This document shows positions 3,004 through 63,178 of a stretch of 64,000 nt of DNA, in pieces. The stretch lies in NCBI RefSeq assembly GCF_030528505.1, contig NZ_JAUMYS010000002.1:1-64000 (forward strand), in the 5' to 3' direction. Origin of the DNA: Tannerella sp. (GTDB lineage: Bacteria > Bacteroidota > Bacteroidia > Bacteroidales > Tannerellaceae). Made by a program: the position numbers and the translations under genes. Below the pieces are notes generated by a model, which was given only the letters and a program-made list of their open reading frames with translations, did not search any database and was not told the origin of the DNA. The first letter of the stretch is position 1; every line of letters begins with the position of its first letter.

Positions 3004-3085
3004 CGTAGAATCGTTTAAATGAAGGCATATTTAAGTCATAGTCGCATGACTATAAATACACCTTCAAATTGCCAACATTTAATGA

Positions 3086-3256: not shown

Positions 3257-3326
3257 GTTTGTTAAATTTTAAATGAATAATACTGTAAAAATACTTCTGT
3301 AATCTCCCGAATTGTGCACCATTCGT

Positions 3327-3683
3327 TTAATCACAACACAAAAATACATCGCTTCGGTGCAATAAAATTGCATTCGGTATTTTTTTGATAAAAAATCCTC
3401 CGGCAATCCGCTTCTGCTCTTTTTCGTCAAGGGGACAGCATTTGATTACGATCTGCAGATCAAAGTCATTAGCATAAAAATACGTACACCGTATTCTGTC
3501 ATATCGTATCTCTGCACCTAAATCCCTCAGTTCGTCCAACACATTGAAAAACTGTCGGCGACAAAGATGCAGGCGTTCGGCGAATTGCTGTGGGTCTCCC
3601 GTTGCTTCGCGCTGTATCAGGCCGTGCATGCGTCTGGCTCTGTCGATGGTTTCAAATAATTGCATAATCATTCTTTTTTTCAT
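3327..3683 (-). CDS. Small putative HTH regulator of the peptide-export operon
   Basis: A 118-residue protein. Residues about 8-60 look like a winged-helix/HTH segment of the DeoR/HTH_11 sort (RARRMHGLIQREATGDPQQFAERLHLCRRQFFNVLDELR, positions about 16-53), followed by a short strand-rich tail. Its start lies 5 bp after the TolC-type gene, so it is the fourth gene of the HlyD-ABC-TolC operon. A local regulatory role is inferred. The HTH call rests on pattern only and no ligand domain is visible. Confidence 0.5.
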   Translation of the reverse strand: MKKRMIMQLFETIDRARRMHGLIQREATGDPQQFAERLHLCRRQFFNVLDELRDLGAEIRYDRIRCTYFYANDFDLQIVIKCCPLDEKEQKRIAGGFFIKKIPNAILLHRSDVFLCCD

Positions 3684-3688
3684 TGTTT

Positions 3689-15241: not shown

Positions 15242-15450
15242 AATTACACGATACACTGTTCGGCGTTTGCCATTATTTAATTGTCAATTGTCAATGGTTA
15301 ATTTTCATACCGGGTACATGGTTCGGCGGGTATCACGCTTTCCCCCTTTGAAGGGGGGGTAGGGGGGATGTTTACCGGCCAACAACTCAACAAATAAGCA
15401 TTTCAACAACTCAACGCCCGCAGGGCATACAAGGGCTGAAAGCCCGAATT
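15242..15450. repeat. Interspersed intergenic repeat region, copy B
   Basis: The module near 15245-15285 (GATACACTGTTCGGCGTTT) and the module at 15383-15450 repeat those at about 258-296 and 464-531 in the same order. In between lie a TTGTCAATTGTCAATGG stutter (15281-15296) and a CCCCCTT/AAGGGGG inverted repeat at 15342-15357. The gap between the CBM9-like gene and the convergent FKBP gene is filled by this block and holds no gene. Confidence 0.65.
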
Positions 15451-26697: not shown

Positions 26698-27213
26698 CGT
26701 ATTATCAGTCGTATAAGAATCAATCCCGCAGCTGCTTTCTTTTTCCCGACGAAATTTTCATAGCCTTTCGCAGTATCCGGCGCATGGCCGGCGTGCTTGC
26801 TTGGCCTTTTCATACCATTACCGCATCTTGCTCCGGGCGGATGAGAAATATTTTCTTCTCGGCCGGGCATGACCATACCATGCGCGAAGACGTTCCGATT
26901 CGCCGGGAGATGTCCGTAGAATCTACGATGATTTCCCGTCGCGGCGGGCGATTCCCGTACGGTCTATTATCTTTTCCCGGCATGGCGGGCGACTCCCGTA
27001 GAACCGATGATCTTTTCCCGTCGCGGCAGAACATCTCCGTAAGGTCTATGATAACTTCCCGTCGCGGCGGGCGATTCCCGTATGGTCTATTATCTTTTCC
27101 CGGCATGGCGGGCGATTCCCGTAGAACTTATGCTTCTTTCCTGCCGCACGGGAGAAAGCCTCTGTCACGCTGCTACGATCATTTCATTATTCAACCTCTA
27201 AAATACCAATCTT
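26698..27213 (+). other. Gene-free leader region containing a 41-bp array
   Basis: No convincing gene is present between the 59-aa membrane gene and the gene at 27214, apart from the possible leader ORF. The region is dominated by a tandem array (26894-27180). Open frames on both strands through the array are unlikely to be proteins, because the 41-bp unit shifts frame at every copy. Confidence 0.6.
26894..27180. repeat. Tandem array of a 41-bp unit (about seven copies)
   Basis: Units begin with CCCG at 26935, 26976, 27017, 27058 and 27099, all exactly 41 bp apart, with more degenerate units starting near 26894 and 27140. Two forms, CCCGTCGCGGCGGG and CCCGGCATGGCGGG, alternate, so the pair 26935/26976 is almost repeated at 27058/27099 (123-bp higher period). 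Each unit can form a small CCCG/CGGG hairpin. It ends about 33 bp before the gene at 27214. Confidence 0.8.
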
Positions 27214-46953: not shown

Positions 46954-48237
46954 TTACAGGTCGAACCCAATGTCGCGACGGTAGTACTTCTTTTCGAAGC
47001 CGATGGCTTCCGCTCCGGCAAACGATTTCTTCAATGCCTCCTCCTTCGTGTCCCCGTATGAGCTGACGGCAACGACACGTCCGCCCGATGTAACGATTGT
47101 TCCGTCTTTCCGCGTCGTTCCGGCATGAAAGACGATGCGGTCGGGAGTATCGATCGCCTCAAGCCCGCTGATGACTTTCCCTTTCTCATACGCTTCGGGA
47201 TACCCGCCGCTGACGAGCATCACGGTAACGGCCGCACGCTCATCTTCGATTAGTTCGCATGTGGCCAGCCTGCCTTGAGCTACCCCTTCGAGCAGTTCGA
47301 CCAGGTCGCTCTTGATACGCAGCATCACGACTTCCGTTTCGGGGTCGCCCATGCGACAGTTGTATTCGATCACCATCGGCTCGCCTTTCACGTTGATCAA
47401 TCCGAGGAAGATAAATCCTTTATAGTCGATGCCTTCGGCACGCAGCCCGTCAACAGTGGGGCGGATAATGCACTCTTCGACCTTTTGCATAAAAGCAGCG
47501 TCGGCAAACGGAACGGGCGATACAGCACCCATACCACCGGTGTTCAGGCCGGTATTTCCTTCGCCAATCCGTTTATAATCTTTCGCCACGGGCAGGATTT
47601 TGTAATCGTTGCCATCGGTCAGGACAAACACCGAGCATTCGATCCCGTCGAGAAACTCCTCAATAACGACGGTGCGGCTCGCCTCACCGAACATGCCTTC
47701 CAGCATTTGGCGCAGTTCTTTCCGTGCATCGTCGAGCGAATTGACGATCAGCACGCCCTTTCCGGCTGCGAGTCCGTCAGCTTTCAACACGTAAGGAGGC
47801 GAGAGTGTTTCGAGAAAAGCCTCGCCGGCTGCCAGCTCTTCGGCGGTAATGCTTCGGTAACGGGCGGTAGGAATGCCATGCCGCATCATAAATGCCTTGG
47901 CAAAATCTTTACTTCCTTCCAGCTGCGCGCCCTCACGACTCGGCCCGATCACCGGGATGGCAGCCAACGACTCGTCATCGCGAAAATAGTCATAAATCCC
48001 TGCTACCAACGGGTCTTCCGGCCCAACGACGACCATCTCGACCCCATTCTTCAGCACAAAATCTTTGATTCCTGCAAAATCATTCGCACGCAGGTCCACG
48101 TTCGTTCCCACAGAAGCAGTCCCCGCGTTGCCGGGGGCAATATAAAGCTGTCCCACTTTCGAACTTTGAGCCATTTTCCAGGCCAACGCATGCTCGCGCC
48201 CTCCCGAGCCTAAAAGCAATATCTTCATTGTTTTCAT
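46954..48237 (-). CDS. purD: Phosphoribosylamine-glycine ligase
   Basis: A 427-residue GAR synthetase. It joins 5-phosphoribosylamine and glycine using ATP in purine synthesis. Motifs include [18 protein letters not shown] at the N-terminus (nearly invariant), [18 protein letters not shown], the ATP-grasp segments [16 protein letters not shown] and [11 protein letters not shown], and GMGAVSP. Length is normal. ATG codons at 48237 and 48228 are both possible, since the latter starts at MKILLLG. The gene leads a run with two membrane-protein genes. Confidence 0.96.
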
Positions 48238-48430
48238 TGTTTATTCATTTATGTTCTTTTGCCTCCCGATATCTCTCTCCTACTGCACAGAGTCGTCAGA
48301 CGGCGACCTTAATAACAGGCAAATTTTCGAGGAGGCATCATGCCCCCTGATATTTCCCGCAAATATATGGAATTATTGTTGTCTTATAAAAGCATTTGTC
48401 GGATTAAAAATAAATGGGAAGAAAAACAAC

Positions 48431-48456
48431 AGCCCCTCCTTGAATAAGGAGAGGCT
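48431..48456 (-). terminator. marC terminator
   Basis: The stem AGCCCCTCCTT (48431-48441) with AAGGAGAGGCT (48446-48456) and a GAAT loop is followed on the minus strand by a T-rich stretch (GTTGTTTTTC). It lies about 64 bp downstream of the marC stop. Confidence 0.65.
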
Positions 48457-48519
48457 TTATGATAAAAGATGAAGATGTTTTAACACCCCTTCACCATATT
48501 GTGAACCGTATCTATCTCT

Positions 48520-49176
48520 TTAAGGAAGAGTAAGCGAGCCTTCCTTTAAGATATCGACCAGAATCGGTTGGGCCCCGCTCACGAAGCATTCGACGGCAAT
48601 CACCATCAGAATCAAGCCCATCAGACGCATCATAACGTTATTCCCTGTTTCCCCGAGCACTTTAACAAGACGAGTCGAAGCGCTTAGCATAAAAAAAGCA
48701 AAGAGATAAATCAATGCCACCACACCGATTAATACACCTTTCATCTCGATGGTGTGCGCGTCCTGCATCAGAACGATGGCATTGGCAATGGCTCCCGGCC
48801 CGCAGAGCATCGGGATGCCGAGTGGCGTAATCGAAATGTCGTTGGCGTACGTTTTGATCTCCTCATCTTTCAGGCGGAGCGAAGTGTATCGCGCCTGCAA
48901 CATATCAAATCCGATTTTGAAGATGATCACTCCTCCGGCGATGCGAAAGCCATTCGTCGAAATTCCGAAGAATTTGAATAAGAACTGTCCGGAAAAGATG
49001 AAGACCATCAACGTGAGAAAGGCGACGATGGTAGCGCGGCGCACAATGGCACGGCGTTCCTTCTCGGTCATACCGTTTGTCATGGTCAGAAAGACAGGCA
49101 TCGTACCTAACGGATTTGTTAAGGTAAAGAACGACGTAAAACACAGTAACGCAAAGGGCAAAAGTCCTGTATCCAT
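48520..49176 (-). CDS. marC: MarC-family membrane protein
   Basis: A 218-residue protein with six hydrophobic helices. Family motifs are FFTLTNPLGTMPVFLTMT near residue 16, a GxxxGF-like GGVIIFKIGFDML and ITPLGIPMLCGPGAIANAIV at about 117. The name comes from an E. coli locus once thought to affect multiple antibiotic resistance; the transported substrate is unknown. The gene stands between purD and GH29. Confidence 0.85.
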   Translation of the reverse strand: MDTGLLPFALLCFTSFFTLTNPLGTMPVFLTMTNGMTEKERRAIVRRATIVAFLTLMVFIFSGQFLFKFFGISTNGFRIAGGVIIFKIGFDMLQARYTSLRLKDEEIKTYANDISITPLGIPMLCGPGAIANAIVLMQDAHTIEMKGVLIGVVALIYLFAFFMLSASTRLVKVLGETGNNVMMRLMGLILMVIAVECFVSGAQPILVDILKEGSLTLP

Positions 49177-49213
49177 TTATTTCTTGTTGTTTGTGCTTGT
49201 GAAAAACTGTTTT

Positions 49214-51268
49214 TTATTCTGTAATAAGCGAGAAGCCTCCGATTTTGAGCGGCGGATTGCTAACTACACTCTTTGCCGTAATACGCAGCGTCTTTCCTTG
49301 CACCGGCTGTGCAAACCGGACTTCCTGCATGACGGGATTGTTTCGGATATTGGAGAACTCGCCTTTCGCCACTTCTTTCCCATCGACAAAAACCTGATAA
49401 AAAGCGATGTGACCATCGGCATAACGCTGTTGATTCGGTAGATAACGGAATCCTGCGATCGGAGCATTCTCTTTCAAGACGATCGTCAACGAGTTCTCAG
49501 TCTTGGGCAACGTATAAAGCGTATTCCCATCGCCATCAAAAAGAGCTGTCATCTTTTCGTCCGTCATCTCGTATGACGAGGCCGGGATATCCAGCTCGGC
49601 CGTAGTAACCGGACTCCATTTATCAAATGTCGCATCATAGCAAGCTGCTTTGATCCGCCCCTTCTGCGCAAACGTAAAAGGCGCCTCATAACGCGTCGAT
49701 TCCAGCGAAGGATTCGAACCGTCAGTCGTGTAGTAGATGACGGAATTCTTATCGCCCGAGAGCATCTTTACCTCATCTTTCTCGTTACGAACGATGCGCG
49801 GCTCAACCATCAGCGCCGGCGCCAAAAATGCTTCCACATTATTGATACAAAGCGGACCACGGGCATCGAGGAAGCGTATCCGGAACTGTTTGGCGGTAAC
49901 GGTCTGGAAACGAACGATCCGTTTGTAGCCGACCGTTGTCGTAGAGTCATACGCCTCGACAGGGCTCCATTGGCCTTCCTGCTCAGCCTCGATGACAAAG
50001 GAGCGGACACGTTGTCCGAGCGGGATATATTCCTGAATCAGAAAACGGTTCAGCGCCGTCGGCTCGGAGAAAGAGAACGTCATATCACCGCTTACTTCAC
50101 CATCGGCCGTTGCCCAATAAGTATCCCAATTGTCGTCAAGCACATACTTGGCAGCGTATTGGCTCCCCCGCTCAGCCGAGGCTTTAACCGTAGCTCGGGC
50201 AAGCAGATTTTCTTTCAAATCGTTGCGAATCGTTTCGGCCCATTCCATCACCCTTGCGGAATCGCATGGATGAATCGTCCCGCGCAGAGAGATCGGGAAG
50301 TTCAGGATAAGGTTCGCGTTATGCCCGATACTGCGATAATAATAATCGACCATCTGCGAGAGCGTACGTACCTGATGATCTTCGCTGGCATGATAGAACC
50401 ATCCCGGACGTATCGACACATCGACTTCGCCGCCGAGCCATTTCGTTCCGTTTTCATCGCCCCACTGACTTTGTTTGTAGTGATAGTTATGCTCCGGCTC
50501 TGTTCCGAAGATGCTCCATTGCGTGTCGCCCGCCCATCCGCTCTCGTTGCCGATCCAGCGAATGTCAGGCACCGTACCTCCGAAAATCATCGCATCGGGA
50601 TGTTTCTCTTTGATGATTTCGCGTGCCTTCTCGTAGTTGTAATAAGTCGAAGCGTTGATCGAGCGTTTTTCGTTCGCGCCACCATACCAGCCGTCTCCGC
50701 CGTTCGCCCCGTCGAACCAGAATTCGAAAAGCGGTCCATAGTTCGATGACAATTCACGTATCTGGTTATGATACGTCTCCACGTATCCGGAACGGCCGTA
50801 TTCGGCGTGATTTCGATCCCACGGCGAGAGGTAAACCCCCAATTTCAGGTCGTATTTCTTACACGCTTCGGAAAGGTCACGCACCACATCGCCTTTGCCG
50901 TCTTTCCATGGCGAATTTTTCACGCTGTATTCCGTTGTCTCCGTCGGCCAGAGGCAGAAACCGTCATGGTGTTTCGTCGTAATGACAACCCCTCTGAATC
51001 CGGCGGCTTTGATGATGCGCGCCCACTGGTCGCAATCGAGATTCTCCGGGTTGAATGTCGATGCAGGCGTATCGCCGTACCCCCATTCAAGGTCGTTGAA
51101 CGTATTTAACCCGAAATGTACAAACGCATACATTTCCGTTTTATGCCAAGCCACCTGTTCGGGTGTAGGAACGGGCATGACGGGTGCCGGAGCTTCCGTA
51201 ACACCATTATTACACGCACACCATGTCGCTGTCATGCAACCGAAGACAAGAAGTTTTTTTAGATTCAT
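49214..51268 (-). CDS. GH29 alpha-L-fucosidase with carbohydrate-binding domains
   Basis: A 684-residue lipoprotein-like secreted enzyme (N-terminal [11 protein letters not shown], Cys near 17-19). The GH29 catalytic domain covers about 35-345 with [25 protein letters not shown] and the nucleophile Asp186 in [11 protein letters not shown] discoidin-like F5/8C domain (about 350-480), a chitobiase-type C-terminal module ([12 protein letters not shown], about 510) and a second discoidin-like region follow. It should release terminal alpha-L-fucose from host or plant glycans. It is divergent from the GH2 copies. Confidence 0.85.
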
Positions 51269-51301
51269 CGCTATATTTGTTGATCATGATTAATTCTTCC
51301 A

Positions 51302-51309
51302 CAAAGATA
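51302..51309 (-). promoter_or_regulatory. Probable -7 box of the GH29 gene
   Basis: CAAAGATA on the plus strand reads TATCTTTG on the minus strand, 34 bp upstream of the GH29 ATG. No TTTG lies at the right distance, so an activator is probably needed. Confidence 0.45.
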
Positions 51310-51321
51310 TGACTTTTTTTG

Positions 51322-52209
51322 AAAGATACATTTTTACCTTCACAAAATCAAACAGGTTCCGGATATTGGAGCGTAAAAAATAGAGAGAAGCCTCCTTCTT
51401 CCTCATTTCATGTGAAAATGTAACATAATCTCTCTTTTTCGTAACATCGAAACAAGCGACTGTTGAATGGATCATCTAATTTCGCATCAAAAAACAGATT
51501 GGATATGATACGTCGTGCATTGCTTCTTTTGGTTTTGGTGTATTGTTTGCCGGATGTGGCGTCGCCTGCAGGTCAATCGGCCGACGGGGGGCGCTCCCAA
51601 ATCTCGTTCAACTCCGGGTGGCTCTTTTCGAAGAATGAAGCCGACGCCGCCTTGCCGGATAGAGCGACGGCCGGATGGCAAGCCGTACAGCTTCCTCATA
51701 CCTGGAACGATAAGGATGTGCTCGCCGACGGGCAGAGAGGATACTATCGCGGCGTCGGCTGGTATAAGAAACGATTTCGCCTTGTCCCTGAGAAGGGAAA
51801 AAGGTATTTTCTTCGGTTCGAAGGGGTGAATCAAACGGCCGAAGTGTTTGTAAACGGGAAACCGGCCGGAGAACATACGGGTGGTTACACTGCTTTCAAC
51901 GTCGATTTAACGCCTTTCCTCGAGGCATCGGGCGAACAGTACATTGCCGTAAAAGCGGACAACAGCCATCGGGATGACGTGCCGCCCCTGTCCGCCGATT
52001 TCACTTTCTTCGGCGGTATATACCGGCCGGTACATCTGATCACCACGGGCGAGCAGCATTTTAGCATGTCGGATTACGGAGGCCCCGGAATTTATATCAC
52101 CACTCCCCGGGTAACGTCTCACAGCACCGACGTATCTATCGCGTACCACCTGCAAAATCGCAGCGAAGCGCCCCAAGCTCTGACGCTCGAGACCGTCGTC
52201 CGGAAAGAC
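51322..52209 (+). repeat. Direct repeat of the GH2 5' part, left copy (888 bp)
   Basis: Matches 57282-58169 with constant offset 5960. The first 605 bp (51322-51926), which hold the regulatory region and GH2 codons 1 to about 141, look identical. The last 283 bp have about two dozen mismatches by eye, mostly at third codon positions. The sequences differ completely outside the repeat. Confidence 0.9.
51419..51484 (+). promoter_or_regulatory. GTAACAT direct repeat and -7-like box, left copy
   Basis: GTAACAT occurs at 51420-51426 and 51441-51447, 21 bp (two helical turns) apart. A -7-like TAATTTCG lies at 51477-51484, 21 bp before the GH2 ATG. The same layout is found at 57379-57444 and, with variations, at 60146-60212. 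Confidence 0.6.
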
Positions 52210-52293
52210 GTTCGTCTGTATTGTATCGGCGTTTATTGGTCGTTCAGATATTTTACTCAGAATGTTTTATTTGCCGACACAAAATTGTGTTAG
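51505..52293 (+). pseudogene. Truncated GH2 beta-galactosidase copy
   Basis: Starts at the ATG at 51505 (MIRRALLLLVLVYCLPDVAS) and matches the intact GH2 enzyme to about residue 235 (VVRKD). It then enters unrelated sequence and stops after 27 further codons (VRLYCIGVYWSFRYF...). Only the N-terminal sugar-binding jelly roll is retained; both catalytic Glu residues are missing. It still has a promoter region and signal peptide, so a short secreted protein could be made. It is most simply a fragment left by integration of the downstream cargo. Confidence 0.85.
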
Positions 52294-52424
52294 GCAAAAG
52301 CCGGAAAGCCTCTTTTTATTATTTTTTTTAATTGTATAATAAGTCGGATTTCTTTTTGAAGCCTGTTTTTCCTTTCTTCCGATTAAATGACTGAAAAAAA
52401 CGAGCTTCCGTTGTTGGATAACAC

Positions 52425-53429
52425 TTACTCCTTCAGTCGTTTTAGCAGAACATGTTGCATGGCATTGTAGAAAAGAGCAGTAGATAAATGGCCCGTATTC
52501 CAAATTTCCACTTCCATATCTCCGTAGGCAGGTGCGTGCTCGTGGAGTGGTAAAAACACATCGTAGCGAGCCATGACCGGAAACGCATTGGGGGATTGAT
52601 TTTCTTGCCATTGAGCAGAGAAATTCAAGTGCTGTGTAATGATTCTGTTCCGTTGAATCTCCTTTTCCGTTGCATTTTTCTTTGGGAAAATAAAAAACTT
52701 CTCGTGAGCTACCGTTCCTACTATCGGGACGTAAAAATCGGCCGAATTATACGTTACCCGGTGCCTGTTTGCTATCACGGCTCCCAGGCTGAAGCCGCCA
52801 ATTTCAATGCTCCGTACTCCTTTTTGTCGTAAGGTACGGAGCAGCATTTCGGTCAATTTCACACTTGTTGCCATCGTTGCCATAAAGGTCGATAGGGTCG
52901 CCGTTCCCTGTTTCAACGCCCCTTTTTCCTTGTGAAAAGGAGTTCGGACCACGATCAGGTTTGTCCCCAAATCGTTGAGTTTTTCTTTTTTGAAGATGTT
53001 GGAAAAAATCCCATAAAAGGGATATTCCGATGCTCCGTGATGGAAAATAAGGGTGTTGGAAGTGTCCGAATGCCATTTGTGTACTAAGAATGCGGGGTCT
53101 AAAATGCCTGCTTTGGTAGAAGCCTTCACCTCGTACAATCCTTCGCTGTGCCAGTCGGGAATTTCCAAGTTTATGTCCTCTACGTGCTCGGTGAAATCGG
53201 CCGTTCCCACTCCATCGGGAAAATAAACCGGTTCGGAATACGCCATTCGATCTACTAAAAAAGATAAATTAAAAGCCGGAATTTCTTTTTTATTCGCAGC
53301 ATCCGATGCTTGTATGAATGTTTTACTTGTTTTTTCGTAAGACGGATTCCGGAAAAGCCATAAAAGCCCGATTGCTAAGCAACCGACAATTGACAACAAG
53401 AGCAAAAAGATCATTTTTTTGGTTTTCAT
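52425..53429 (-). CDS. Alpha/beta-hydrolase-like membrane-anchored protein (ABHD18-like)
   Basis: A 334-residue protein with an N-terminal hydrophobic anchor (about 6-26) and a hydrolase-like region. Likely catalytic pattern: LIFHHGASEYPFYGIF oxyanion area, Ser in IGGFSLGAVIANRHR and His in NTGHLS near the end. Substrate unknown. It is the first gene of the cargo on the minus strand, 131 bp after the truncated GH2 gene. Confidence 0.65.
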   Translation of the reverse strand: MKTKKMIFLLLLSIVGCLAIGLLWLFRNPSYEKTSKTFIQASDAANKKEIPAFNLSFLVDRMAYSEPVYFPDGVGTADFTEHVEDINLEIPDWHSEGLYEVKASTKAGILDPAFLVHKWHSDTSNTLIFHHGASEYPFYGIFSNIFKKEKLNDLGTNLIVVRTPFHKEKGALKQGTATLSTFMATMATSVKLTEMLLRTLRQKGVRSIEIGGFSLGAVIANRHRVTYNSADFYVPIVGTVAHEKFFIFPKKNATEKEIQRNRIITQHLNFSAQWQENQSPNAFPVMARYDVFLPLHEHAPAYGDMEVEIWNTGHLSTALFYNAMQHVLLKRLKE

Positions 53430-53508
53430 TTTTTTGTAAGTCCTAAATTTTTAAGCAAAGTTAGCGCAGGAAGTCAAGCCCGGACAGGAACAAAGAGGCA
53501 AGGACAAC

Positions 53509-54246
53509 TCATTGTATCTTTCGTGTGGCTCTTTTTATAATCCATTGGGTATGTGTATTGTCGGAAGATTTCCAACGCCCGATCAGAGGCTGTACCGCTT
53601 CTCGATTCACTTTAAGCCAGTCGGTGAGGTGGTTGGAAACCGATTTTTTCACGAAGAGTATTTCGTCTTCTTTTAACAGCTCCAAGATCCGGAAAACGGG
53701 CGCGGGATTTTCTATAAACGTATCCAGTTTACTGGCCCAGGGCAACTTCGGACGAAGCCCTTCGCTGGCCAATCTGCGCAAATGGAAATTGGGCGATTTC
53801 ACCCATTTTTCGATGATTCTGAGCGAGTCTTCGGGATATTTTCGGATGTAGGGCCGAACGGCGTACTCGCCCGTATTTCTTTTGGTTATCTCTTCGATGG
53901 CTTGCATCGAAAGCTCGAAATGCTCGATGCCGTATTCCTGCACAAATTTGCCGATGGGCAAAATCCAATAATAATGGGTAAACATCCCCGTTTCGTTGGG
54001 ATTTTCCTCGCCCAAAACAGCCATCAGAACAGGCAAAGCCTTCTCGTAATCCGCCGGAAGATAATTTCTTAGCAGCTCGGCAAGGGTAGCCACGCGTTGG
54101 GTGTAACTTTGTCCAACGGTTTTGCTGTCGGTGTCTTGTATAAAGCGGTCTGCCTCAAACTCAGGATAGACGGTGCCGATTTTTTCGGCTAATAACTCGG
54201 CGAGACCGGCCCCAAACTGTTCGGTAATGCTGTAATTGCTTCCCAT
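53509..54246 (-). CDS. DNA alkylation repair protein, AlkC-like (HEAT-repeat fold)
   Basis: A 245-residue, almost fully helical protein. The motif WVKSPNFHLRRLASEGLRPKLPWA (about 148-171), followed by WLKVNREAVQPLIGRWK, is typical of the AlkC group (COG4335) of DNA glycosylases, which remove alkylated purines. The N-terminal half has the usual helix pairs (YTQRVATLAELL). It lies 79 bp from the hydrolase gene on the same strand. It is not closely linked to any other repair gene in the window. Confidence 0.75.
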   Translation of the reverse strand: MGSNYSITEQFGAGLAELLAEKIGTVYPEFEADRFIQDTDSKTVGQSYTQRVATLAELLRNYLPADYEKALPVLMAVLGEENPNETGMFTHYYWILPIGKFVQEYGIEHFELSMQAIEEITKRNTGEYAVRPYIRKYPEDSLRIIEKWVKSPNFHLRRLASEGLRPKLPWASKLDTFIENPAPVFRILELLKEDEILFVKKSVSNHLTDWLKVNREAVQPLIGRWKSSDNTHTQWIIKRATRKIQ

Positions 54247-54521
54247 TTTTTCGGTTTTTGAGGCAAAAGTAATTTATTTTTTTGAGAGGGAAGGGGGAGA
54301 GGATTGTATTATCTTTTCCGGATGGGATGCTTGGAGATATTGGTTGTTTGAATGGTGGTTTCTTAACTTCTTTTATATGGTTTTGGATATTGGATTGTAT
54401 TTGTGGAATTAAGCTGATTTTCTTTTAACTAAGAGGTATGTAAATAAAAAGATATATGAAGAATATGTGGAAAATAAACAAAATGTGTATATTTGCCCTT
54501 GTATGGCATAAATAAACGACC

Positions 54522-55196
54522 ATGAAACAAAATACAGCGGAACGATTTCTGATTTTAATTCAGCATCCTGAAAAATCAAGATTTTTAGTTTCAGATCAAG
54601 TTAGAAATGTTGGTTTAATAGGGGCAATTTTACTTGACTTATCACTTGAAGGCACAATTAATATAGAAGCAGGGAAATTGATACTTAAATCGACAGAAAC
54701 GAAATTATCAATAGTGCATAAGAAGGTACTTAAGCAATTTGAAAAGTCCACAAAAACAAGAAAAATAAAAACGTGGATTTCAAGATTATTAAAGCATAGT
54801 AGGAGATATCAAAAAGAGATACTGTTGGTGCTTGAAAGAAAAGGATACCTAAAAATAGAGCCAAGAAAGTTCTTGTTTTTCAGCTATTATAAAACACGTT
54901 TGACCAATACTGCAGTTAGAGAGCAAATTATTAATGAGGTTAGAGATGTAATTTTTTATGCGAAACAAATAGATCATGATAGATCAATGATTCTAGGCTT
55001 AATCGACGCGTGCAAAATGTATAAAGTCATAGGTAGAGATAGAAGAGAATTAAAAATTTGTAAGACAAAATTGCGAGAGATCATTCAAGCCGACTTGATA
55101 TCCCAAGGAGTTGACAAGGTGATTAAAGAAATGAACGCGGCTATTCTTGCAGCTGTAGTTGCATCGACTGTGGCTGCTACGTCAACTTCAAATTAA
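54522..55196 (+). CDS. GPP34/GOLPH3-family protein
   Basis: A 224-residue protein. GPP34 pattern: ERFLILIQHPEKSRFLVSD, VGLIGAILLDLSLEGTINIE, VLERKGYLKIEPRKFLFFSYYKTRLT. The last ~15 residues are Ala/Ser/Thr-rich (AAILAAVVASTVAATSTSN), which may form a membrane-binding tail. Bacterial members occur in Actinobacteria and Bacteroidetes; eukaryotic GOLPH3 binds phosphoinositides. Role here unknown. The gene and its neighbourhood are clearly AT-rich. Confidence 0.75.
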   Translation: MKQNTAERFLILIQHPEKSRFLVSDQVRNVGLIGAILLDLSLEGTINIEAGKLILKSTETKLSIVHKKVLKQFEKSTKTRKIKTWISRLLKHSRRYQKEILLVLERKGYLKIEPRKFLFFSYYKTRLTNTAVREQIINEVRDVIFYAKQIDHDRSMILGLIDACKMYKVIGRDRRELKICKTKLREIIQADLISQGVDKVIKEMNAAILAAVVASTVAATSTSN

Positions 55197-55420
55197 TTGA
55201 GATTTAATAATATATGCTACAGAAAGCATCTATGAAATATTACACCGATTGAAGATGAATAATTTATATCATAAGGCATAGAGTGTTTACTATGTGGTTT
55301 TCAGAGCGATTGGCAAGTTCGTCGATAGTTGGCAAGAGCAGAAACGTTGGACGGTAAGTGAGCAAGAACTCCCATACGGCCAATGCTTTCATCGTTGTGT
55401 GTTACCAAAAAATAAAACAA

Positions 55421-56266
55421 ATGATAGAGTCGACAACAAAAAGTTATCCGAGCGTATCTCAAAGCTTTGGGATTACAGGAATCCTAATTTTAGGAGTAGT
55501 ATTGTTTAGTCCTGTGGATTTACTATTAAACAAATTTATCGGAAAAGAGGCTTCAGTGCTAATCTATTATCTTTTATCCATTGGAGTGCCTTTCTGGATA
55601 GTGCATTTAATTAGAAAAAGAAAGACCAATTGTCATACGTTTAATTTGACAATTAAAAATAAGCGAATAATCCCGTTTATAGTTATAGGAACAATAGCAC
55701 TGCTTATGGGAATAGTCGGACCAATTACGAGTCTAATACCAACTCCGGAAAGTTTAAAAAAAATACTTATGGGTCTTGTAAGCCAGACAGGAATTTTTAC
55801 TTTCATTTTAATGGTCATTGCTGCTCCAGTTTTCGAGGAATTAATATTTCGAGGAATAATCTTAGATGGGTTATTAAAAAGATATTCTCCAACAAAGTCT
55901 ATTCTGGTTTCTAGTTTGCTTTTTGGATTGGTGCACTTGAATCCTTGGCAATTTGTAACCGGATTCATAATAGGATTTTTTTCAGGATGGGTTTATTACA
56001 GAACCAGAAGTTTATCGTTTTCTATTATAATACATGCAGCAGCCAATCTGAGTGGATTTTTGATGAGATTTTTTATAGATGTCGACTCATACATGAATGC
56101 AAGCATGGTGGATATGTATGGTGGATTGATAAACTTGATATTCGTAATTTTAGGCTCGGTATTAATTATGGCTGCCTGTGTCTATTTCTTACATAAGGAA
56201 TTTGAAAGACTAAACCCAAATTCCGAAATAGAAAAAAGAGAAAAGAATCAGCAAATTTGCATCTGA
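55421..56266 (+). CDS. CPBP-family intramembrane metalloprotease
   Basis: The ATG at 55421 (MIESTTKSYPSVS) gives 281 residues; an upstream GTG start is less likely. About eight hydrophobic segments. The CPBP (Abi) motifs are complete: EELIFRG (EExxxR), the FGLVHLNPWQF His motif and the late HAAAN. Such proteases can take part in immunity to self-made bacteriocins or in protein processing. It lies in AT-rich cargo, 224 bp downstream of the GPP34 gene. Confidence 0.85.
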   Translation: MIESTTKSYPSVSQSFGITGILILGVVLFSPVDLLLNKFIGKEASVLIYYLLSIGVPFWIVHLIRKRKTNCHTFNLTIKNKRIIPFIVIGTIALLMGIVGPITSLIPTPESLKKILMGLVSQTGIFTFILMVIAAPVFEELIFRGIILDGLLKRYSPTKSILVSSLLFGLVHLNPWQFVTGFIIGFFSGWVYYRTRSLSFSIIIHAAANLSGFLMRFFIDVDSYMNASMVDMYGGLINLIFVILGSVLIMAACVYFLHKEFERLNPNSEIEKREKNQQICI

Positions 56267-56552
56267 TAAATCTCATATTTTTTTAATGTATCGAATGGGG
56301 GAATTCTCAAGAAAGGCAGCAGAATGATTCCTTGTTTTTCTGTATGCGGCAAGACCCAGTTCACATAGCATAGAACATTCCATTAACGCACTGATGAGAA
56401 AATAGTAACACCCAGCACATGGTATAGTCCATGCGGGTTTTAACGGTTTGCTAGTGTTTGTGCCTTATAAGAAAGTCTGAGACAAACTGATAGTCGAGAT
56501 TCTTTTAATGTTCTCTGATAACAAAGAAAATATATGTATTAAGGGTGTTAAG

Positions 56553-57182
56553 TTATTGCACATCAAACATCTTTTCAATCTGCGAAGATAAAGATACTTG
56601 CGTGTATTTTTTAGATTTATGATAAAGATAGATGTTCAGATCGTTCTTAAATTGAGGATTTAGAATCCCGTCTTTGTAATCTTGTTGAATCATTTTTTTA
56701 TTGTTAAACACGGTATTAACAATATGTTCGACTACTAAATCACTTAATTCAGTATAGGGCTTGTTTGAATTTGCAATTAAAAATTTTTCGACTTCCTGCT
56801 TCATGAAGATCAGCGTGTTGTTATCTTTTGGGCAATCGCCTAATGGGAGTAGCATTAACTCAAAATAAACGGGACATTGATCGATAGCCTGATACGTGAA
56901 ATTCTTTAAATACTCTTTTAATATTTTCTTATTAGACGAATTTGGATATTTATGTCTCAATTCACTCATTAATTCCTTCACTTTGTCTTGGTTCTCTATT
57001 CTCACTTTGTTCCCAAGTTGGATTAGTTCTGTTTGGATTCTCTCTGGAGGTAGCTTTTTAATCTTTTCCGGATGAATCTCATGACATAGCTTATCAACAA
57101 GATAAGTATATTGATCCGACTGAGCGGAACCGATGTATGGGGTCAGAATTAGAGTGGTTAAAATCAAAAATTTACCTTTCAT
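56553..57182 (-). CDS. Secreted protein of unknown function
   Basis: A 209-residue protein with a signal peptide (MKGKFLILTTLILTPYIGSAQ). The rest is helical and Lys/Glu-rich, with Cys residues near 33, 103 and 117 (KLCHEIHP, QCPVYFE, GDCPKD). No family was recognised. Its promoter (57281-57312) overlaps the edge of the GH2 repeat. Confidence 0.6.
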   Translation of the reverse strand: MKGKFLILTTLILTPYIGSAQSDQYTYLVDKLCHEIHPEKIKKLPPERIQTELIQLGNKVRIENQDKVKELMSELRHKYPNSSNKKILKEYLKNFTYQAIDQCPVYFELMLLPLGDCPKDNNTLIFMKQEVEKFLIANSNKPYTELSDLVVEHIVNTVFNNKKMIQQDYKDGILNPQFKNDLNIYLYHKSKKYTQVSLSSQIEKMFDVQ

Positions 57183-57280
57183 ATACTACATTCTTTTTAT
57201 TTTGTCTAACTCATAAAGATACGTAATCCTATCATCGATATCTCTCTAAAAGAGCTAATTTAAGCGATGACTTACATGCG

Positions 57281-57312
57281 CAAAGATACATTTTTACCTT
57301 CACAAAATCAAA
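57281..57312 (-). promoter_or_regulatory. Promoter of the 209-aa gene, overlapping the GH2 repeat edge
   Basis: On the minus strand TTTG (57312-57309), a 20-bp spacer and TATCTTTG (57288-57281) fit the consensus. Its last base lies just outside the repeat; the left copy has TATCTTTC at the same place, so the full box exists only in the right copy. Confidence 0.6.
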
Positions 57313-58169
57313 CAGGTTCCGGATATTGGAGCGTAAAAAATAGAGAGAAGCCTCCTTCTTCCTCATTTCATGTGAAAATGTAACATAATCTCTCTTTTTC
57401 GTAACATCGAAACAAGCGACTGTTGAATGGATCATCTAATTTCGCATCAAAAAACAGATTGGATATGATACGTCGTGCATTGCTTCTTTTGGTTTTGGTG
57501 TATTGTTTGCCGGATGTGGCGTCGCCTGCAGGTCAATCGGCCGACGGGGGGCGCTCCCAAATCTCGTTCAACTCCGGGTGGCTCTTTTCGAAGAATGAAG
57601 CCGACGCCGCCTTGCCGGATAGAGCGACGGCCGGATGGCAAGCCGTACAGCTTCCTCATACCTGGAACGATAAGGATGTGCTCGCCGACGGGCAGAGAGG
57701 ATACTATCGCGGCGTCGGCTGGTATAAGAAACGATTTCGCCTTGTCCCTGAGAAGGGAAAAAGGTATTTTCTTCGGTTCGAAGGGGTGAATCAAACGGCC
57801 GAAGTGTTTGTAAACGGGAAACCGGCCGGAGAACATACGGGTGGTTACACTGCTTTCAACGTCGATTTAACGCCTTTCCTCGAGGCGTCGGGAGAGCAGT
57901 ACATCGCCGTAAAAGCGGACAACAGCCATCGGGATGACGTGCCGCCCCTGTCGGCCGACTTCACCTTCTTCGGTGGTATATACCGGCCGGTACATCTGAT
58001 CACCACGGGCGAACAGCATTTCAGCATGTCGGACTACGGAGGTCCCGGAATCTATATCACCACTCCCCGGGTAACGCCTCACAACGCCGATGTAACCATC
58101 GCGTACCACCTGCAAAATCGGAGCGACGTGCCTCAAGCTCTGACGCTCGAGACCGTTGTCCGGAAAGAC
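57282..58169 (+). repeat. Direct repeat of the GH2 5' part, right copy (888 bp)
   Basis: Partner of 51322-52209. This copy continues into the intact GH2 gene. The two copies enclose about 5.07 kb of cargo (52210-57281). Confidence 0.9.
57379..57444 (+). promoter_or_regulatory. GTAACAT direct repeat and -7-like box of GH2
   Basis: GTAACAT at 57380-57386 and 57401-57407 (21-bp period), then TAATTTCG at 57437-57444, 31 bp after the second GTAAC. The arrangement suggests a dimeric activator with two contacts on one DNA face. Confidence 0.65.
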
Positions 58170-60119
58170 ATCGCCTCCGCTTTGGCGACGGAAACCACCG
58201 CCGTAACGATTCCTGCCTTTGGCGATACGGTTGTGACGGTAACCTGTTCGGACGTGCGGAATTTCGATCTGTGGAGTCCCGATCATCCGGCGATGTATTA
58301 CGTGGAGAGCCAGCTGATACAAGCGGGCAAACGAGTCGACAATCTGTCGCAGCCGCTCGGATTCAGAACGTTTCGTTTCGATCCGGAAAAAGGCTTTTTC
58401 ATCAATGGAAAAAACATCAAACTGATGGGCGCCAACCGCCATCAGGACAGGATACCCTACGGCAATGCGTTGGGCAACGATATGCACCGGCAGGATCTGC
58501 GTCTGCTCAAAGAGATGGGGGGCAACTTTTTGCGCAATGCGCATTATCCGCAGGCTACGGAAGTGCTGGATCAGGCCGACCGGCTGGGATTTGCCGTATG
58601 GGAGGAGATACCTCTCGTAAACGAGGTAACCCTCAGCCCGAAACACGCCGAGAACGCGGCCGTGATGCTCAAAGAGATGATCAAGCAGCATTACAACCAC
58701 CCTTCGGTGGTGATCTGGGCCTATATGAACGAGATCTATTGGGCGCACCGGTTTAAGCCGCAAGAGGAGATTGCCGGAAGGAACCGGGCGACGCTCGAAC
58801 TGGCACGACATCTCGAAGACGTTGCGCGGGAGCTCGATCCACATCGGTATACGGCCATGGCAATGCACAATTATCCCGCCTACGAGGAGACCGGATTGGG
58901 GGATATCCCGATGATTGCCGGATGGAATCTGTATCACGGTTGGTATTACGGCAAATACGAAGATTTTGGGACGTTTATGGACGAACAGCGGCGCAAATAT
59001 CCGAAGCGCATTCATTTGATCAGCGAATACGGGGCAGGTTCCGATGTGCGGCTGTATTCCGAAAAACCGGAGAAGTTCGATTTCACCATCGAAGAGCAGA
59101 TCCGTTTCACCCGTTCCATCACTACGCAAATCCTCGACCGGCCTTATATTGCCGGAGGCGCGCTGTGGAATCTGATCGATTTCAGTTCCGAAAGAAGGGT
59201 GGACGCTACTTCCCACATCAACAACAAAGGGTTGGCAACGGCCGACAGAAAACCCAAAGACGCCTATTTTCTGATGCAGGCGTTGCTGTCGGAAAAGCCG
59301 GTAGCACGATTGGGATATCCTTTCCGCAACCGGTGGATACACGCCGCAACTTCGCCATTCGATACACTGGTGCCTGTGCGGATGCACGCATTCTCGAATC
59401 AAAAGAGCTTGTCGCTGTATGTAGACAACCGTCTCTTCGGAGAAGCGGAGGTAAAAAACGGAATGGCCGAGTGGGAGATGAAGCTCGCTCCGGGGAAGCA
59501 TCTGTTGTCTCTCGCACCGAACAGTCCGAATACGCCGCAGAAGCAAATCGAGGCTCGGCTGATTCCGTTCCGTCCGGATGGAATGGCGTCGGAGTTGGCA
59601 ATGAATGTCGGGGCCAATTACGCCTTTATCGATACCCGCACAGACCTCTACTGGCTTCCCGAACGGACGTACGAAAAGGGCAGTTGGGGCGTTGTGGGCG
59701 GAGAGCCGCTTTACGTAGGGGGCAAAGTGGGTACTAAGGAAGATATCCTCGCTGTGGACGAAGAAGACCCTCTCTACCAGACGATGCGTGTAAACCCGGA
59801 AGGATTCGGAGCCGACGTGCCTGACGGAACGTACGAGATCGAGCTGTTGATGGTCGACTACGTGAAAAAATCGCGGCGCTTTGCCGACGAGGACAAAGAG
59901 ATTGCCTACGAGCCGGGGCGGAGAGTCTTCGGCATATCGGTCAACGGAACGACGATTCTCCCCGAAATCGATCTGGGCGGCAGCTACGGTTTGAATGTGC
60001 CGTGCAGGATCACCTTCAGATATACGGCAACAGATAACGCCGGATTATCGATCCGATTTCACCCCGTCAGCGGGGAGCCTGTTTTGAGCGCCGTTCGCAT
60101 TCGTGCCATTGGATTTTAG
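57465..60119 (+). CDS. GH2 beta-galactosidase-like glycoside hydrolase
   Basis: The ATG at 57465 gives 884 residues with a signal peptide (about 1-20). Domains: N-terminal jelly roll (about 30-190), Ig-like domain (about 200-300), TIM barrel (about 300-600) and C-terminal modules, the last malectin-like (about 760-884). The acid/base is Glu423 in VVIWAYMNEIYW and the nucleophile Glu521 in LISEYGAG. It should hydrolyse a beta-galactoside or related beta-glycoside in the periplasm. The exact sugar is unclear. It shares an operator-like element with the receptor gene 230 bp downstream. Confidence 0.9.
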   Translation: MIRRALLLLVLVYCLPDVASPAGQSADGGRSQISFNSGWLFSKNEADAALPDRATAGWQAVQLPHTWNDKDVLADGQRGYYRGVGWYKKRFRLVPEKGKRYFLRFEGVNQTAEVFVNGKPAGEHTGGYTAFNVDLTPFLEASGEQYIAVKADNSHRDDVPPLSADFTFFGGIYRPVHLITTGEQHFSMSDYGGPGIYITTPRVTPHNADVTIAYHLQNRSDVPQALTLETVVRKDIASALATETTAVTIPAFGDTVVTVTCSDVRNFDLWSPDHPAMYYVESQLIQAGKRVDNLSQPLGFRTFRFDPEKGFFINGKNIKLMGANRHQDRIPYGNALGNDMHRQDLRLLKEMGGNFLRNAHYPQATEVLDQADRLGFAVWEEIPLVNEVTLSPKHAENAAVMLKEMIKQHYNHPSVVIWAYMNEIYWAHRFKPQEEIAGRNRATLELARHLEDVARELDPHRYTAMAMHNYPAYEETGLGDIPMIAGWNLYHGWYYGKYEDFGTFMDEQRRKYPKRIHLISEYGAGSDVRLYSEKPEKFDFTIEEQIRFTRSITTQILDRPYIAGGALWNLIDFSSERRVDATSHINNKGLATADRKPKDAYFLMQALLSEKPVARLGYPFRNRWIHAATSPFDTLVPVRMHAFSNQKSLSLYVDNRLFGEAEVKNGMAEWEMKLAPGKHLLSLAPNSPNTPQKQIEARLIPFRPDGMASELAMNVGANYAFIDTRTDLYWLPERTYEKGSWGVVGGEPLYVGGKVGTKEDILAVDEEDPLYQTMRVNPEGFGADVPDGTYEIELLMVDYVKKSRRFADEDKEIAYEPGRRVFGISVNGTTILPEIDLGGSYGLNVPCRITFRYTATDNAGLSIRFHPVSGEPVLSAVRIRAIGF

Positions 60120-60145
60120 CGTTCTGTGGACTGTATCGGCGGTTG

Positions 60146-60212
60146 TGTAACATAATTCCTCTTTTTGGTAACCGTATAAATGATGGATATTGGTAAATTA
60201 AGATTAACTTCG
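60146..60212 (+). promoter_or_regulatory. GTAAC direct repeat and -7-like box upstream of the receptor gene
   Basis: GTAACAT at 60147-60153 and GTAAC at 60168-60172 (21-bp period), then TAACTTCG at 60205-60212, 32 bp later. The 27-bp core matches that of GH2 at 24 of 27 positions by eye. Confidence 0.6.
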
Positions 60213-60349
60213 CAAAACAAATCATGAAGAGGGCGCGCATAGAGATATTATTGGGGATTCGGGTTTAAGATGAACATACGGTATGGTTAGATGACAAACG
60301 GTTAGATACTTTTATTTTCTAAAAAGACAATCATTGAAAAACAAAACAA

Positions 60350-63178
60350 ATGAAAAGACTCTTACTTTTTATAGTTACGACCTTCTGCTTGCTCGTTGCG
60401 GGGATGTCGGCACAAGCGCAAACCTATGAGATACAAGGGACAATTATCGATGCCGACACGCAGGAACCTCTTCCCGGAGCAGCGGTGTACGATCAGGCCA
60501 ATTACAACGGCACGGCCACCGATTTGGAGGGGCATTTCCGTTTGACCGGCCTGAAGAGCGGAAAAACCGTGCTTACCTTTTCCTATCTGGGATACAAGAC
60601 CGAAGAAAAAACCGTAAACATGCCTGCCGACCATCATCAGGTGATGAGGATTCGTTTGTCGCCGGCAGACAAGGTGCTGGCCGAAGTCATAGTCGTGGGG
60701 AGCTTCGAAGGTCAGCAGCGGGCGCTCAACCAGCAACGGGCTGCGGACAACATCAAGAACGTCGTTTCGGCCGACCTCATCGGAAAGTTTCCCGATAAAA
60801 ATGTGGCGGAGGCGTTGCAGCGATTGCCCGGGATCAACATTGCCCGCGACAAAGGCGAAGGTTCCACCGTCTCCATACGCGGTACGCCGCAGCATTTCAC
60901 CAACATCAGCATCAACGGTGAGCAACTCGCGTCGGTACAGCAGAGCGGGACGAGAACCGAATCGCTCGATCTGATTCCGGCAGACCAGCTCGGTTCCATC
61001 GAGATCACCAAAGCATTGACGGCCGATATGGACGGCGATGCGGTGGGCGGAAACATCAACCTGAGAACCCCGACCGCACGATCGGACAAGCTCCGCGTCA
61101 AGGGAGACCTCGGGATGGGATTCAACGACCTCTCCGGGAAACTGAACTACATCGGCAAACTGCAACTCAGCCGGCGCTTCTTCCCCGACGCGAACACTTC
61201 GCAGGGACGTTTCGGCGTGCTGGTCAGCGGAAGTTATTACGGGAACAACAACTCCGAAGACCGGATGGATGCTTCCTGGTCGGGCATCAAGAAACCGGTC
61301 GAGATGGTGAACGAACGTCTCATCATGCCGGAAGATTTTCAGTTCCGGAAGACGGAGAACAAACGTACACGTGTGGGCACGACCGTTACGCTCGACTACA
61401 AGGTGAAACATCACGAAATCGTCTTCAACTACATGTACAATTACCGGAAAGACGACGACGTGCGCAACCGCCTGCGATTCGATTTCAACAGAAGCGGGTC
61501 GGAATGGATTACGCACGACAGCCTGAGACGCGGAAGAATCCGCCGCGACATAAATCTCTGGAAAGAGATCAAGTCGAACCACAACTTCAACCTCGAAGGG
61601 ACCCACCGGTTTGGCCGCTGGACGCTCGATTGGGGTACGTTCTATACCGTTTCGAAGCGAGACCATACCAGTACCCGGGGAGATTTCGCGCGCAACGATG
61701 TAACCATCGTAGCCGACAATCCGCGGGGGGTATTGGCCGAGGTGCCTCAGTTCAGGCCGATCGTTCCGTTGAATATCAAAAATCCGCTGTTGTTCGATAA
61801 TTTCAGGAGGTACGAAGAAGATATGGGAACGACCGACGCCTCGAACCTCGTGGGGAAATTCAATCTTCAGAAAAACTACATGCTGAAAGATTACGCAGGC
61901 GTCTTTAAATTCGGAGGAAAGGTGCGGAGCGTAACGAACGATAAGTTCCGAAATAACCGGGTGCTTTCTTTCTTCGATCCGAATCAGGAAGTAAATCTGG
62001 CCGAAGCCTTTGCGCACGTTGCCGGAAACACCGAGCCGAAGGAGTTTCTGAACGGAAGGTATGCGTTCGGCCCCAGAGTGGATAAAGAAAAGTTTACCCG
62101 TTATATGGCTGCGCACCGGCGATTGCTTACCGAGTCGGACGACTCGTGGGATGCCGAGCGGCTGTCGAAGAACGATACCTACAACGCTAAGGAGAACGTA
62201 TACGCCGCCTATCTGATCAACCGCATTCAGATAAAAAAGATTCTGTTGATTACCGGAGTGCGGTACGAGTACAACGATGTAAATTACAGTGCGTTCGATG
62301 TGAAGCGGTCGGGTACGAAGATCGTAGCGACTCCCATCAGCGGCGGAACGAACTACGGCTTTCTGCTGCCGAGCGTGCACGTCAAGTACAGCCTCGATGA
62401 GCTCACCAATTTCCGGTTCGCCTATACCCATTCTTACGCCAAACCCAACTTCGTGGATATCGTGCCGTTTATCAATTACGACGCCGATGCGGCGCGGCTG
62501 TTTATCGGGAACACCAACCTGAAACCTTCGCTGTCGAACAACATCGACCTGATGTTCGAGAAGTACAACCGCAGCGGCGGAGTCGTTTCCGCCGGACTGT
62601 TCTACAAGAACATGAACCGTTTTCAGTTCACGAGAATCATTCCTTCGCTCATCGAAGACTATCCAGGCTTCCCTCAAACGGCCGGATTCGAGTTCCGTCA
62701 GGAGCAGAACGGCGAAAGAGCGACGGTCTACGGTTTCGAGTTTAATTTTATGCGCAAGCTCAATTTCCTCCCCGGAGCGATGAAAGGTTTAAGCGCCTAC
62801 CTCAATTATACCTTCACCGGAAGCGATGCCAGCACGCAGGACCGGAGCAACATGCGGCTGCCGGGACAGGCCATGCATACCGGAAACGCCTCGCTCTCGT
62901 GGGACTATAAAGGGTTCAGCAGCAAGGCCAGCCTCAATTACAACGGCTCGTACATCCATTCGGTGGCCAGCAACGAGAACGACGATATTATTCAGGACGA
63001 CCGGTTTCAGCTGGATCTGAATCTCTCGCAGCAGATTACGAAGAAGATCAGCCTCTATGCCGAATTTGTGAACATCACGAACTCGCCCGCCCGTCAGTAT
63101 CAGGGAAACAACCGTCAGATCTCGCGCCTGGCCTATTTCGGCTGGTGGACGCGGTTCGGTATCACTTACAGACTTTAA
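60350..63178 (+). CDS. TonB-dependent receptor (non-SusC type)
   Basis: A 942-residue receptor. It has a signal peptide (to AQAQ, about 24), a CarboxypepD_reg-like domain (25-110), a plug with NVAEALQRLPGINIARDKGEGSTVSIRGT and DGDAVGGNINL, and a barrel ending FGITYRL. The plug is of the TonB-Xanth-Caul type, not SusC-like, and no SusD follows. It should import a small glycoside or siderophore-like ligand. Context with GH2 and GH29 points to sugars. A lipoprotein gene follows 41 bp downstream. Confidence 0.88.
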   Translation: MKRLLLFIVTTFCLLVAGMSAQAQTYEIQGTIIDADTQEPLPGAAVYDQANYNGTATDLEGHFRLTGLKSGKTVLTFSYLGYKTEEKTVNMPADHHQVMRIRLSPADKVLAEVIVVGSFEGQQRALNQQRAADNIKNVVSADLIGKFPDKNVAEALQRLPGINIARDKGEGSTVSIRGTPQHFTNISINGEQLASVQQSGTRTESLDLIPADQLGSIEITKALTADMDGDAVGGNINLRTPTARSDKLRVKGDLGMGFNDLSGKLNYIGKLQLSRRFFPDANTSQGRFGVLVSGSYYGNNNSEDRMDASWSGIKKPVEMVNERLIMPEDFQFRKTENKRTRVGTTVTLDYKVKHHEIVFNYMYNYRKDDDVRNRLRFDFNRSGSEWITHDSLRRGRIRRDINLWKEIKSNHNFNLEGTHRFGRWTLDWGTFYTVSKRDHTSTRGDFARNDVTIVADNPRGVLAEVPQFRPIVPLNIKNPLLFDNFRRYEEDMGTTDASNLVGKFNLQKNYMLKDYAGVFKFGGKVRSVTNDKFRNNRVLSFFDPNQEVNLAEAFAHVAGNTEPKEFLNGRYAFGPRVDKEKFTRYMAAHRRLLTESDDSWDAERLSKNDTYNAKENVYAAYLINRIQIKKILLITGVRYEYNDVNYSAFDVKRSGTKIVATPISGGTNYGFLLPSVHVKYSLDELTNFRFAYTHSYAKPNFVDIVPFINYDADAARLFIGNTNLKPSLSNNIDLMFEKYNRSGGVVSAGLFYKNMNRFQFTRIIPSLIEDYPGFPQTAGFEFRQEQNGERATVYGFEFNFMRKLNFLPGAMKGLSAYLNYTFTGSDASTQDRSNMRLPGQAMHTGNASLSWDYKGFSSKASLNYNGSYIHSVASNENDDIIQDDRFQLDLNLSQQITKKISLYAEFVNITNSPARQYQGNNRQISRLAYFGWWTRFGITYRL

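What the first reader, a model, noticed from the sequence alone, without database searches (positions are those of the whole stretch)
51322..58169. Campbell-like duplication flanking a 5-kb cargo
A truncated GH2 copy (left) and the intact gene (right) share 888 bp that begin upstream of the gene and end inside it. This is the exact outcome of a circular DNA carrying a GH2 5' fragment integrating by one homologous crossover. No integrase or transposase is visible. Cargo exchange through gene-fragment homology would be an unusual route of acquisition.
Basis: partly seen in the sequence, partly recalled or inferred. Interest (0 to 1): 0.7.

Follow-up and report, generated by a model that had tools for sequence, protein, structure and literature searches.

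The report
Old repeat-flanked cargo at sugar gene
In a mouth bacterium of the genus Tannerella, five accessory genes sit between a broken and an intact copy of the start of a sugar-cleaving gene; the arrangement is real and shared with a dog isolate, so it looks like an old insertion kept up by ordinary DNA recombination, with the cargo swapped over time, rather than one fresh capture of a DNA circle.

Summary
Window 51322-52209 and 57282-58169 are an 888-bp direct repeat (864/888 identical) around 5,072 bp of cargo; the right copy belongs to an intact GH2 gene that opens a six-gene sugar-use operon. The recent one-step Campbell reading is only partly supported. (1) The copies are mosaic: the first 605 bp are identical and all 24 mismatches lie in the last 283 bp (P about 1e-12 if uniform). 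(2) The canine isolate T. forsythia OH1426 has the same stub-cargo junction, the same first two cargo genes (86-89% identical proteins) and a second GH2 5' copy, so the founding duplication is probably older than the split of the two genomes. (3) The other half of the cargo differs: GPP34-CPBP-secreted protein here; HAD plus a ShosTA-like pair, with a frameshifted toxin gene, in OH1426. (4) T. forsythia ATCC 43037 has one GH2, no cargo, at another chromosomal site. Best model: an ancient insertion-duplication, later reshaped by crossover or gene conversion between the repeats, which joined an old stub-cargo module to a newer GH2 5' end beside a fucosidase gene. A circle is possible but not needed. 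No integrase or replication gene is recognisable. An assembly chimera at the left copy is not excluded.

The parts
49214..51268 (-). alpha-L-fucosidase-like gene, left flank
   Evidence: Pfam Alpha_L_fucos 1.3e-34. Similarity to the same locus in ATCC 43037 and OH1426 stops at 51322-51324, within 2 bp of the left edge of the repeat
51322..52209 (+). left repeat copy: GH2 upstream region plus first 249 codons (stub)
   Evidence: 888 bp, 864 identical to 57282-58169
51322..51926 (+). tract identical to the right copy (recently shared or homogenised)
   Evidence: 0 mismatches in 605 bp; the right copy and ATCC differ at 33 of the sites 57423-57885
51927..52209 (+). old part of the stub, 8.5% different from the right copy
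   Evidence: 24 mismatches in 283 bp; 17 synonymous and 6 nonsynonymous over the 279 bp counted
51463..52293 (+). ORF of 276 aa: truncated GH2 with 27 foreign residues at its end
   Evidence: the same stub tail is present in OH1426 C212
52425..53429 (-). cargo gene 1: secreted protein, alpha/beta-hydrolase-like by its GFSLG motif only
   Evidence: no Pfam/NCBIfam hit; of 149 genomes only OH1426 has a close relative (86%), two others 33-35%
53509..54246 (-). cargo gene 2: DNA-alkylation-repair (AlkD-like) protein
   Evidence: PF08713, 4.2e-7; 89% identical in OH1426 C212
54497..57347 (.). exchanged half of the cargo, about 2.85 kb, AT-rich (GC about 0.33-0.36); its right end overlaps the first bases of the right repeat copy
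   Evidence: no DNA match in OH1426 or ATCC 43037; OH1426 has a different segment of about 2.9 kb here
54522..55196 (+). cargo gene 3: GPP34 (Golgi phosphoprotein 3-like)
   Evidence: PF05719, 2.3e-26; relatives in the order at most 30% identical
55358..56266 (+). cargo gene 4: CPBP (Rce1-like) intramembrane protease
   Evidence: PF02517, 3.8e-25
56553..57182 (-). cargo gene 5: predicted secreted 209-aa protein, no family
57282..58169 (+). right repeat copy: GH2 upstream region plus first 249 codons, continuous with the intact gene
57379..57405 (+). operator-like motif TGTAACATAAnnnCTCTTTTTnGTAAC upstream of GH2; also at 51419 and, before the TonB receptor gene, at 60146
   Evidence: exact pattern found at the matching places in ATCC 43037 and OH1426
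57423..60119 (+). intact GH2 glycoside hydrolase, 898 aa
   Evidence: Pfam Glyco_hydro_2 N, middle and C domains, Malectin
60350..63178 (+). TonB-dependent receptor, second gene of the operon (which ends outside the window at contig position 69780)
   Evidence: six-gene order conserved in Proteiniphilum and Capnocytophaga

Best explanation
An old insertion-duplication, reshaped by ordinary homologous recombination. Step 1 (inferred): before the window genome and OH1426 separated, foreign DNA entered at the start of the GH2 operon, leaving a GH2 stub (249 codons), cargo and an intact GH2, so the operon stayed whole. This could be integration of a circle by one crossover, or of linear DNA paired at one end and joined illegitimately at the other. 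Step 2 (shown as a difference, mechanism inferred): about 2.9 kb of cargo between the AlkD-like gene and the right GH2 copy was exchanged in one lineage. Step 3 (inferred from the mosaic repeat): in the window lineage, a crossover or conversion between a current GH2 5' end and the old stub, near 51926, gave a left copy whose first 605 bp are new and identical to the right copy and whose last 283 bp are the old stub, now next to the fucosidase gene. The direct repeats can in principle loop the cargo out as a circle of about 6 kb and leave one GH2; this was not observed.
For: Mosaic repeat with an abrupt switch. Same stub-cargo junction, same first two cargo genes (dS 0.55 and 0.57) and a second GH2 5' copy in OH1426; this dS is within the range of other genes between the two genomes (median 0.53). 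Part of the right flank (contig 75-79 kb) is also shared with OH1426 but not with ATCC 43037. Within OH1426 the stub differs from its own full copy at 6/183 sites but from the window stub at 16/183; no site is shared by the two stubs alone, as expected if copies within a genome homogenise each other. Exchanged half of different gene content and GC. The fucosidase-locus similarity between species ends at the repeat edge. Natural competence of T. forsythia is the subject of a cited paper (Nishikawa and Tanaka 2013; title seen in the reference list of PMC12236230; not read).
Against: Only three genomes with this operon at high identity were available and none is a close strain of the window genome. 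OH1426 contigs break inside the repeat, so the order C153-C212-C163 is inferred. Sharing could also come from later transfer of the whole module between the two genomes. The stub shows a mild excess of synonymous change, so it may not be a simple decaying fragment. No GH2 gene next to the fucosidase without cargo was found.
Confidence: 0.55

Rival explanations
1. Recent Campbell integration: a circle of about 6 kb, looped out of a strain that already carried stub-cargo-GH2, integrated by one crossover into a resident fucosidase-GH2 gene. Such a circle would itself carry the mosaic fragment (new 5' part, old stub 3' part), so it fits the identity pattern.
For: Loop-out at the repeats gives exactly such a mosaic fragment (inference). 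The two ends of OH1426 contig C212 (6,039 bp) lie in the same GH2 repeat, so it could equally be a closed circle. ATCC 43037 has a single GH2 and no cargo.
Against: No replication, mobilisation or integrase gene is recognised in either cargo; the window cargo DNA has no match among 72,556 plasmids and 50,697 phages. No circle was seen directly. The founding duplication still has to be older.
Confidence: 0.2
2. Assembly chimera at the left copy: two alleles or strains (fucosidase-GH2 without cargo; another context-stub-cargo-GH2) were joined by the assembler through the 605 identical bases.
For: 605 identical bp exceed usual short-read lengths. The switch from identity to 8.5% divergence and the coincidence of the species-homology edge with the repeat edge at 51322 would also follow from a wrong join. 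The genome is a 113-contig draft, 91.6% complete. OH1426 contigs break in this very repeat.
Against: Stub end, cargo and GH2 5' end are on one contig in OH1426, an isolate assembled separately, so the core of the structure is real. The window contig runs through without N.
Confidence: 0.15
3. The moving part is the operon, not the cargo: stub and cargo are old resident DNA, and the intact GH2 operon arrived or was replaced by recombination beside the old GH2 remnant.
For: Operon genes have lower synonymous divergence between genomes (medians 0.25-0.31) than other genes (0.53-0.72); p = 0.003 for the window-ATCC pair, 0.06 and 0.09 for the others. The operon lies in different left contexts in all three genomes.
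Against: The p values are modest and the comparison genes few; constraint or codon bias in the operon could lower dS. Tannerella gene order is fluid (translocations and inversions between strains, PMC7014623), so context changes alone do not show transfer. Part of the right flank is shared with OH1426.
Confidence: 0.2
4. Site-specific or transposon-type insertion with a long target duplication.
For: Both copies start at the same base (AAAGATAC, 51322 and 57282).
Against: 888 bp is far too long for a target-site duplication; no other repeat of 25 bp or more at 48000-62000 and no terminal inverted repeats; no transposase or integrase; the cargo differs between genomes while one junction stays.
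Confidence: 0.03

Closest known systems
Insertion-duplication (Campbell-type) recombination and transformation-made merodiploids (Streptococcus pneumoniae, PMC3784515)
   Same: Direct repeats made by recombination between incoming and resident homologous DNA; target gene kept whole; no transposase needed; chimeric repeat at the junction
   Different: Pneumococcal duplications there are 100-900 kb of the cell's own DNA and unstable; here 888 bp flank 5 kb of accessory DNA and the arrangement seems old
Homology-facilitated illegitimate recombination as proposed for Vibrio cholerae T6SS effector arrays (PMC5361080)
   Same: A conserved region serves as anchor, variable modules are exchanged beside it, pieces of the old gene or module remain
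   Different: There the exchanged part belongs to the anchor gene's own function; here the anchor is a sugar-operon enzyme and the cargo is unrelated. One-sided illegitimate joining is not shown here
Variable anti-phage loci in P2/P4-like elements (PMC9122126; abstract seen)
   Same: Conserved borders with different middle genes; in OH1426 the middle encodes a ShosTA-like pair
   Different: No phage or satellite context; only two alleles known; the window allele has no recognised defence gene; the OH1426 ShosT gene is frameshifted

Membership tests
Campbell-type (single-crossover) insertion-duplication | Direct repeats of the target flank the insert, one copy truncated at its 3' end, the other intact | tested here: met
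Campbell-type (single-crossover) insertion-duplication | Relative without the insert has a single target copy | tested here: met
   ATCC 43037 has one GH2, but at another chromosomal site
Campbell-type (single-crossover) insertion-duplication | Differences between the copies as expected for one host and one uniformly diverged donor fragment | tested here: not met
   605 bp identical, then 24 mismatches in 283 bp; needs a mosaic donor or a later event
Campbell-type (single-crossover) insertion-duplication | Circular donor molecule exists | not testable with these tools
   No reads held; OH1426 C212 has both ends in the repeat, which is ambiguous
Homology-facilitated illegitimate recombination | One junction homologous, the other without homology or with microhomology only | tested here: inconclusive
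   At 52209/52210 the stub leaves GH2 with no clear homology, but the donor sequence is unknown
Integrative element / transposon | Recombinase gene and short att or target-site repeats | tested here: not met
ShosTA defence system (OH1426 cargo only) | Adjacent ShosT (phosphoribosyltransferase-like) and ShosA (DprA-like) genes | tested here: inconclusive
   ShosA model 8e-45, ShosT model 3e-11; ShosT reading frame split by a frameshift; activity not tested

The most novel reading that the evidence does not exclude
The start of the GH2 operon is an integrase-free exchange site: the GH2 5' repeats let accessory cassettes, some of them defence genes, be looped out, captured and swapped by general recombination while the operon stays whole.
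Probability: 0.15. Interest if true: 0.6.

Novelty: new member of a known kind. Interest (0 to 1): 0.35.

Why it matters
It is a clear natural example of accessory genes held between homologous gene fragments without any recognisable recombinase gene, with different cargo in two related bacteria. If the repeats really allow exchange, part of the accessory gene pool of oral Bacteroidota would move by plain homologous recombination and be missed by searches for integrases. As it stands the evidence supports a known kind of event, seen after several rounds of recombination.

Tried and rejected
Plasmid or phage origin of the cargo: no DNA match in plasmids or phages, no relative of the hydrolase in viral contigs. 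Transposon or integrative element: no repeats of 25 bp or more other than the 888-bp pair, no enzyme. A second case of the stub in a biogas Bacteroidales MAG (contigs L138/L077 break in the same GH2 zone with a 127-bp overlap): only one copy in that genome, so probably strain variation or assembly. Defence genes in the window cargo: none recognised. GPP34-CPBP pairing elsewhere: no CPBP match near the four distant GPP34 relatives, within the 2.5-3.7 kb held for each.

Full report
Observation. The repeat is real: 51322-52209 and 57282-58169, 888 bp, 864 identical, same orientation, 5,960 bp apart. It starts 141 bp before the predicted GH2 start and ends after codon 249. The right copy continues into an intact 898-aa GH2 gene. 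Between them lie five genes (52425-57182): an alpha/beta-hydrolase-like secreted protein (by motif only), an AlkD-like protein, GPP34, a CPBP protease and a secreted 209-aa protein. The repeat has two parts: 605 identical bp, then 283 bp holding all 24 mismatches. Uniform mismatches would give this with P about 1e-12.

Where it is. The genus is Tannerella: the two closest genomes with this GH2 are T. forsythia ATCC 43037 (G026) and OH1426_COT-023 (G014), the latter a canine oral isolate assembled from Illumina reads (PMC6557473). The window genome is an unnamed draft: 113 contigs, 2.9 Mb, 91.6% complete. GH2 is the first of six genes (GH2, TonB receptor, two surface proteins, metallophosphoesterase, melibiase-like) that keep their order in Tannerella, Proteiniphilum and Capnocytophaga.

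Relatives. ATCC 43037 has one GH2, no cargo, next to mazG. OH1426 has the same stub tail, the hydrolase-like and AlkD-like genes, then a different 2.9-kb segment (HAD, ShosT-like with a frameshift, ShosA-like), then a second GH2 5' copy. Its contigs break inside the repeat: C153 ends and C163 starts there, and both ends of C212 lie there. The linear order C153-C212-C163 is the simplest, but a closed C212 circle gives the same contigs. Both GH2 5' copies in OH1426 are damaged: one lacks the first 63 codons and has a 1-bp deletion, the other has a 32-bp deletion.

Age. The two shared cargo genes differ at dS 0.55-0.57 between the window genome and OH1426, in the range of other genes (median 0.53). 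The junction is therefore probably older than the split, unless the module was transferred later. Yet the first 605 bp of the two window copies are identical, while this stretch differs by several per cent from OH1426 and ATCC 43037. So the left 5' part has been renewed from, or exchanged with, a current GH2. The stubs of the two genomes share no private site, which also suggests homogenisation within each genome.

Left edge. Similarity of the fucosidase locus to both relatives stops at 51322-51324, the repeat edge. A crossover between a fucosidase-GH2 allele and a stub-cargo-GH2 allele near 51926 would give the whole picture: new 5' part, old stub end, cargo, intact gene. Integration of a looped-out circle into fucosidase-GH2 gives the same sequence. 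An assembler joining two strains would too. These three cannot be separated without reads or more strains.

Operon movement. The operon lies in different left contexts in the three genomes (fucosidase; deacetylase plus a 105-bp dispersed repeat; mazG) and has lower dS than other genes, significantly so only for the window-ATCC pair. Published Tannerella comparisons report translocations and inversions (PMC7014623), so rearrangement alone may explain the contexts.

Mechanism. Shown: repeat structure, mosaic, shared junction, exchanged cargo half, no recognised recombinase. Inferred: founding insertion by homology at GH2, later crossover or conversion, possible loop-out. Route of DNA entry is unknown; natural competence in T. 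forsythia is the subject of a paper cited in PMC12236230 (not read here).

Verdict.

Noticed in passing
L021 (OH1426 C212) 2587-5061: HAD phosphatase, ShosT-like and ShosA-like genes in the exchanged half of the cargo; the ShosT reading frame is split by a frameshift (or sequencing error).
   Followed up: partly
window 51419, 57379, 60146: 27-bp motif TGTAACATAAnnnCTCTTTTTnGTAAC before GH2, the stub and the TonB receptor gene, kept in the other two Tannerella genomes; perhaps a regulator site of the operon.
   Followed up: partly
L022 15071-15175; L154 1877-1981; L155 1977-2083: Dispersed element of about 105 bp in OH1426 with imperfect inverted ends (ATTAAC...GTTAAT), one copy directly before the truncated GH2 fragment; MITE-like.
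   Followed up: partly
window 464-531 and 15383-15450: 68-bp dispersed repeat (93%), related copies on several contigs of the window genome and OH1426.
   Followed up: no
window 26860-27146: Five diverged tandem copies with a 41-bp period.
   Followed up: no
L138 end and L077 start (Bacteroidales MAG AS08sgBPME_260): Contigs break in the same GH2 zone with an exact 127-bp overlap; no second copy found in that genome.
   Followed up: partly
contig G000:C12 70-84 kb (L048): Right of the operon, a stretch of small accessory genes (CPBP, reductase-like, hydrolase, ABC transporter), partly shared with OH1426 C163.
   Followed up: partly
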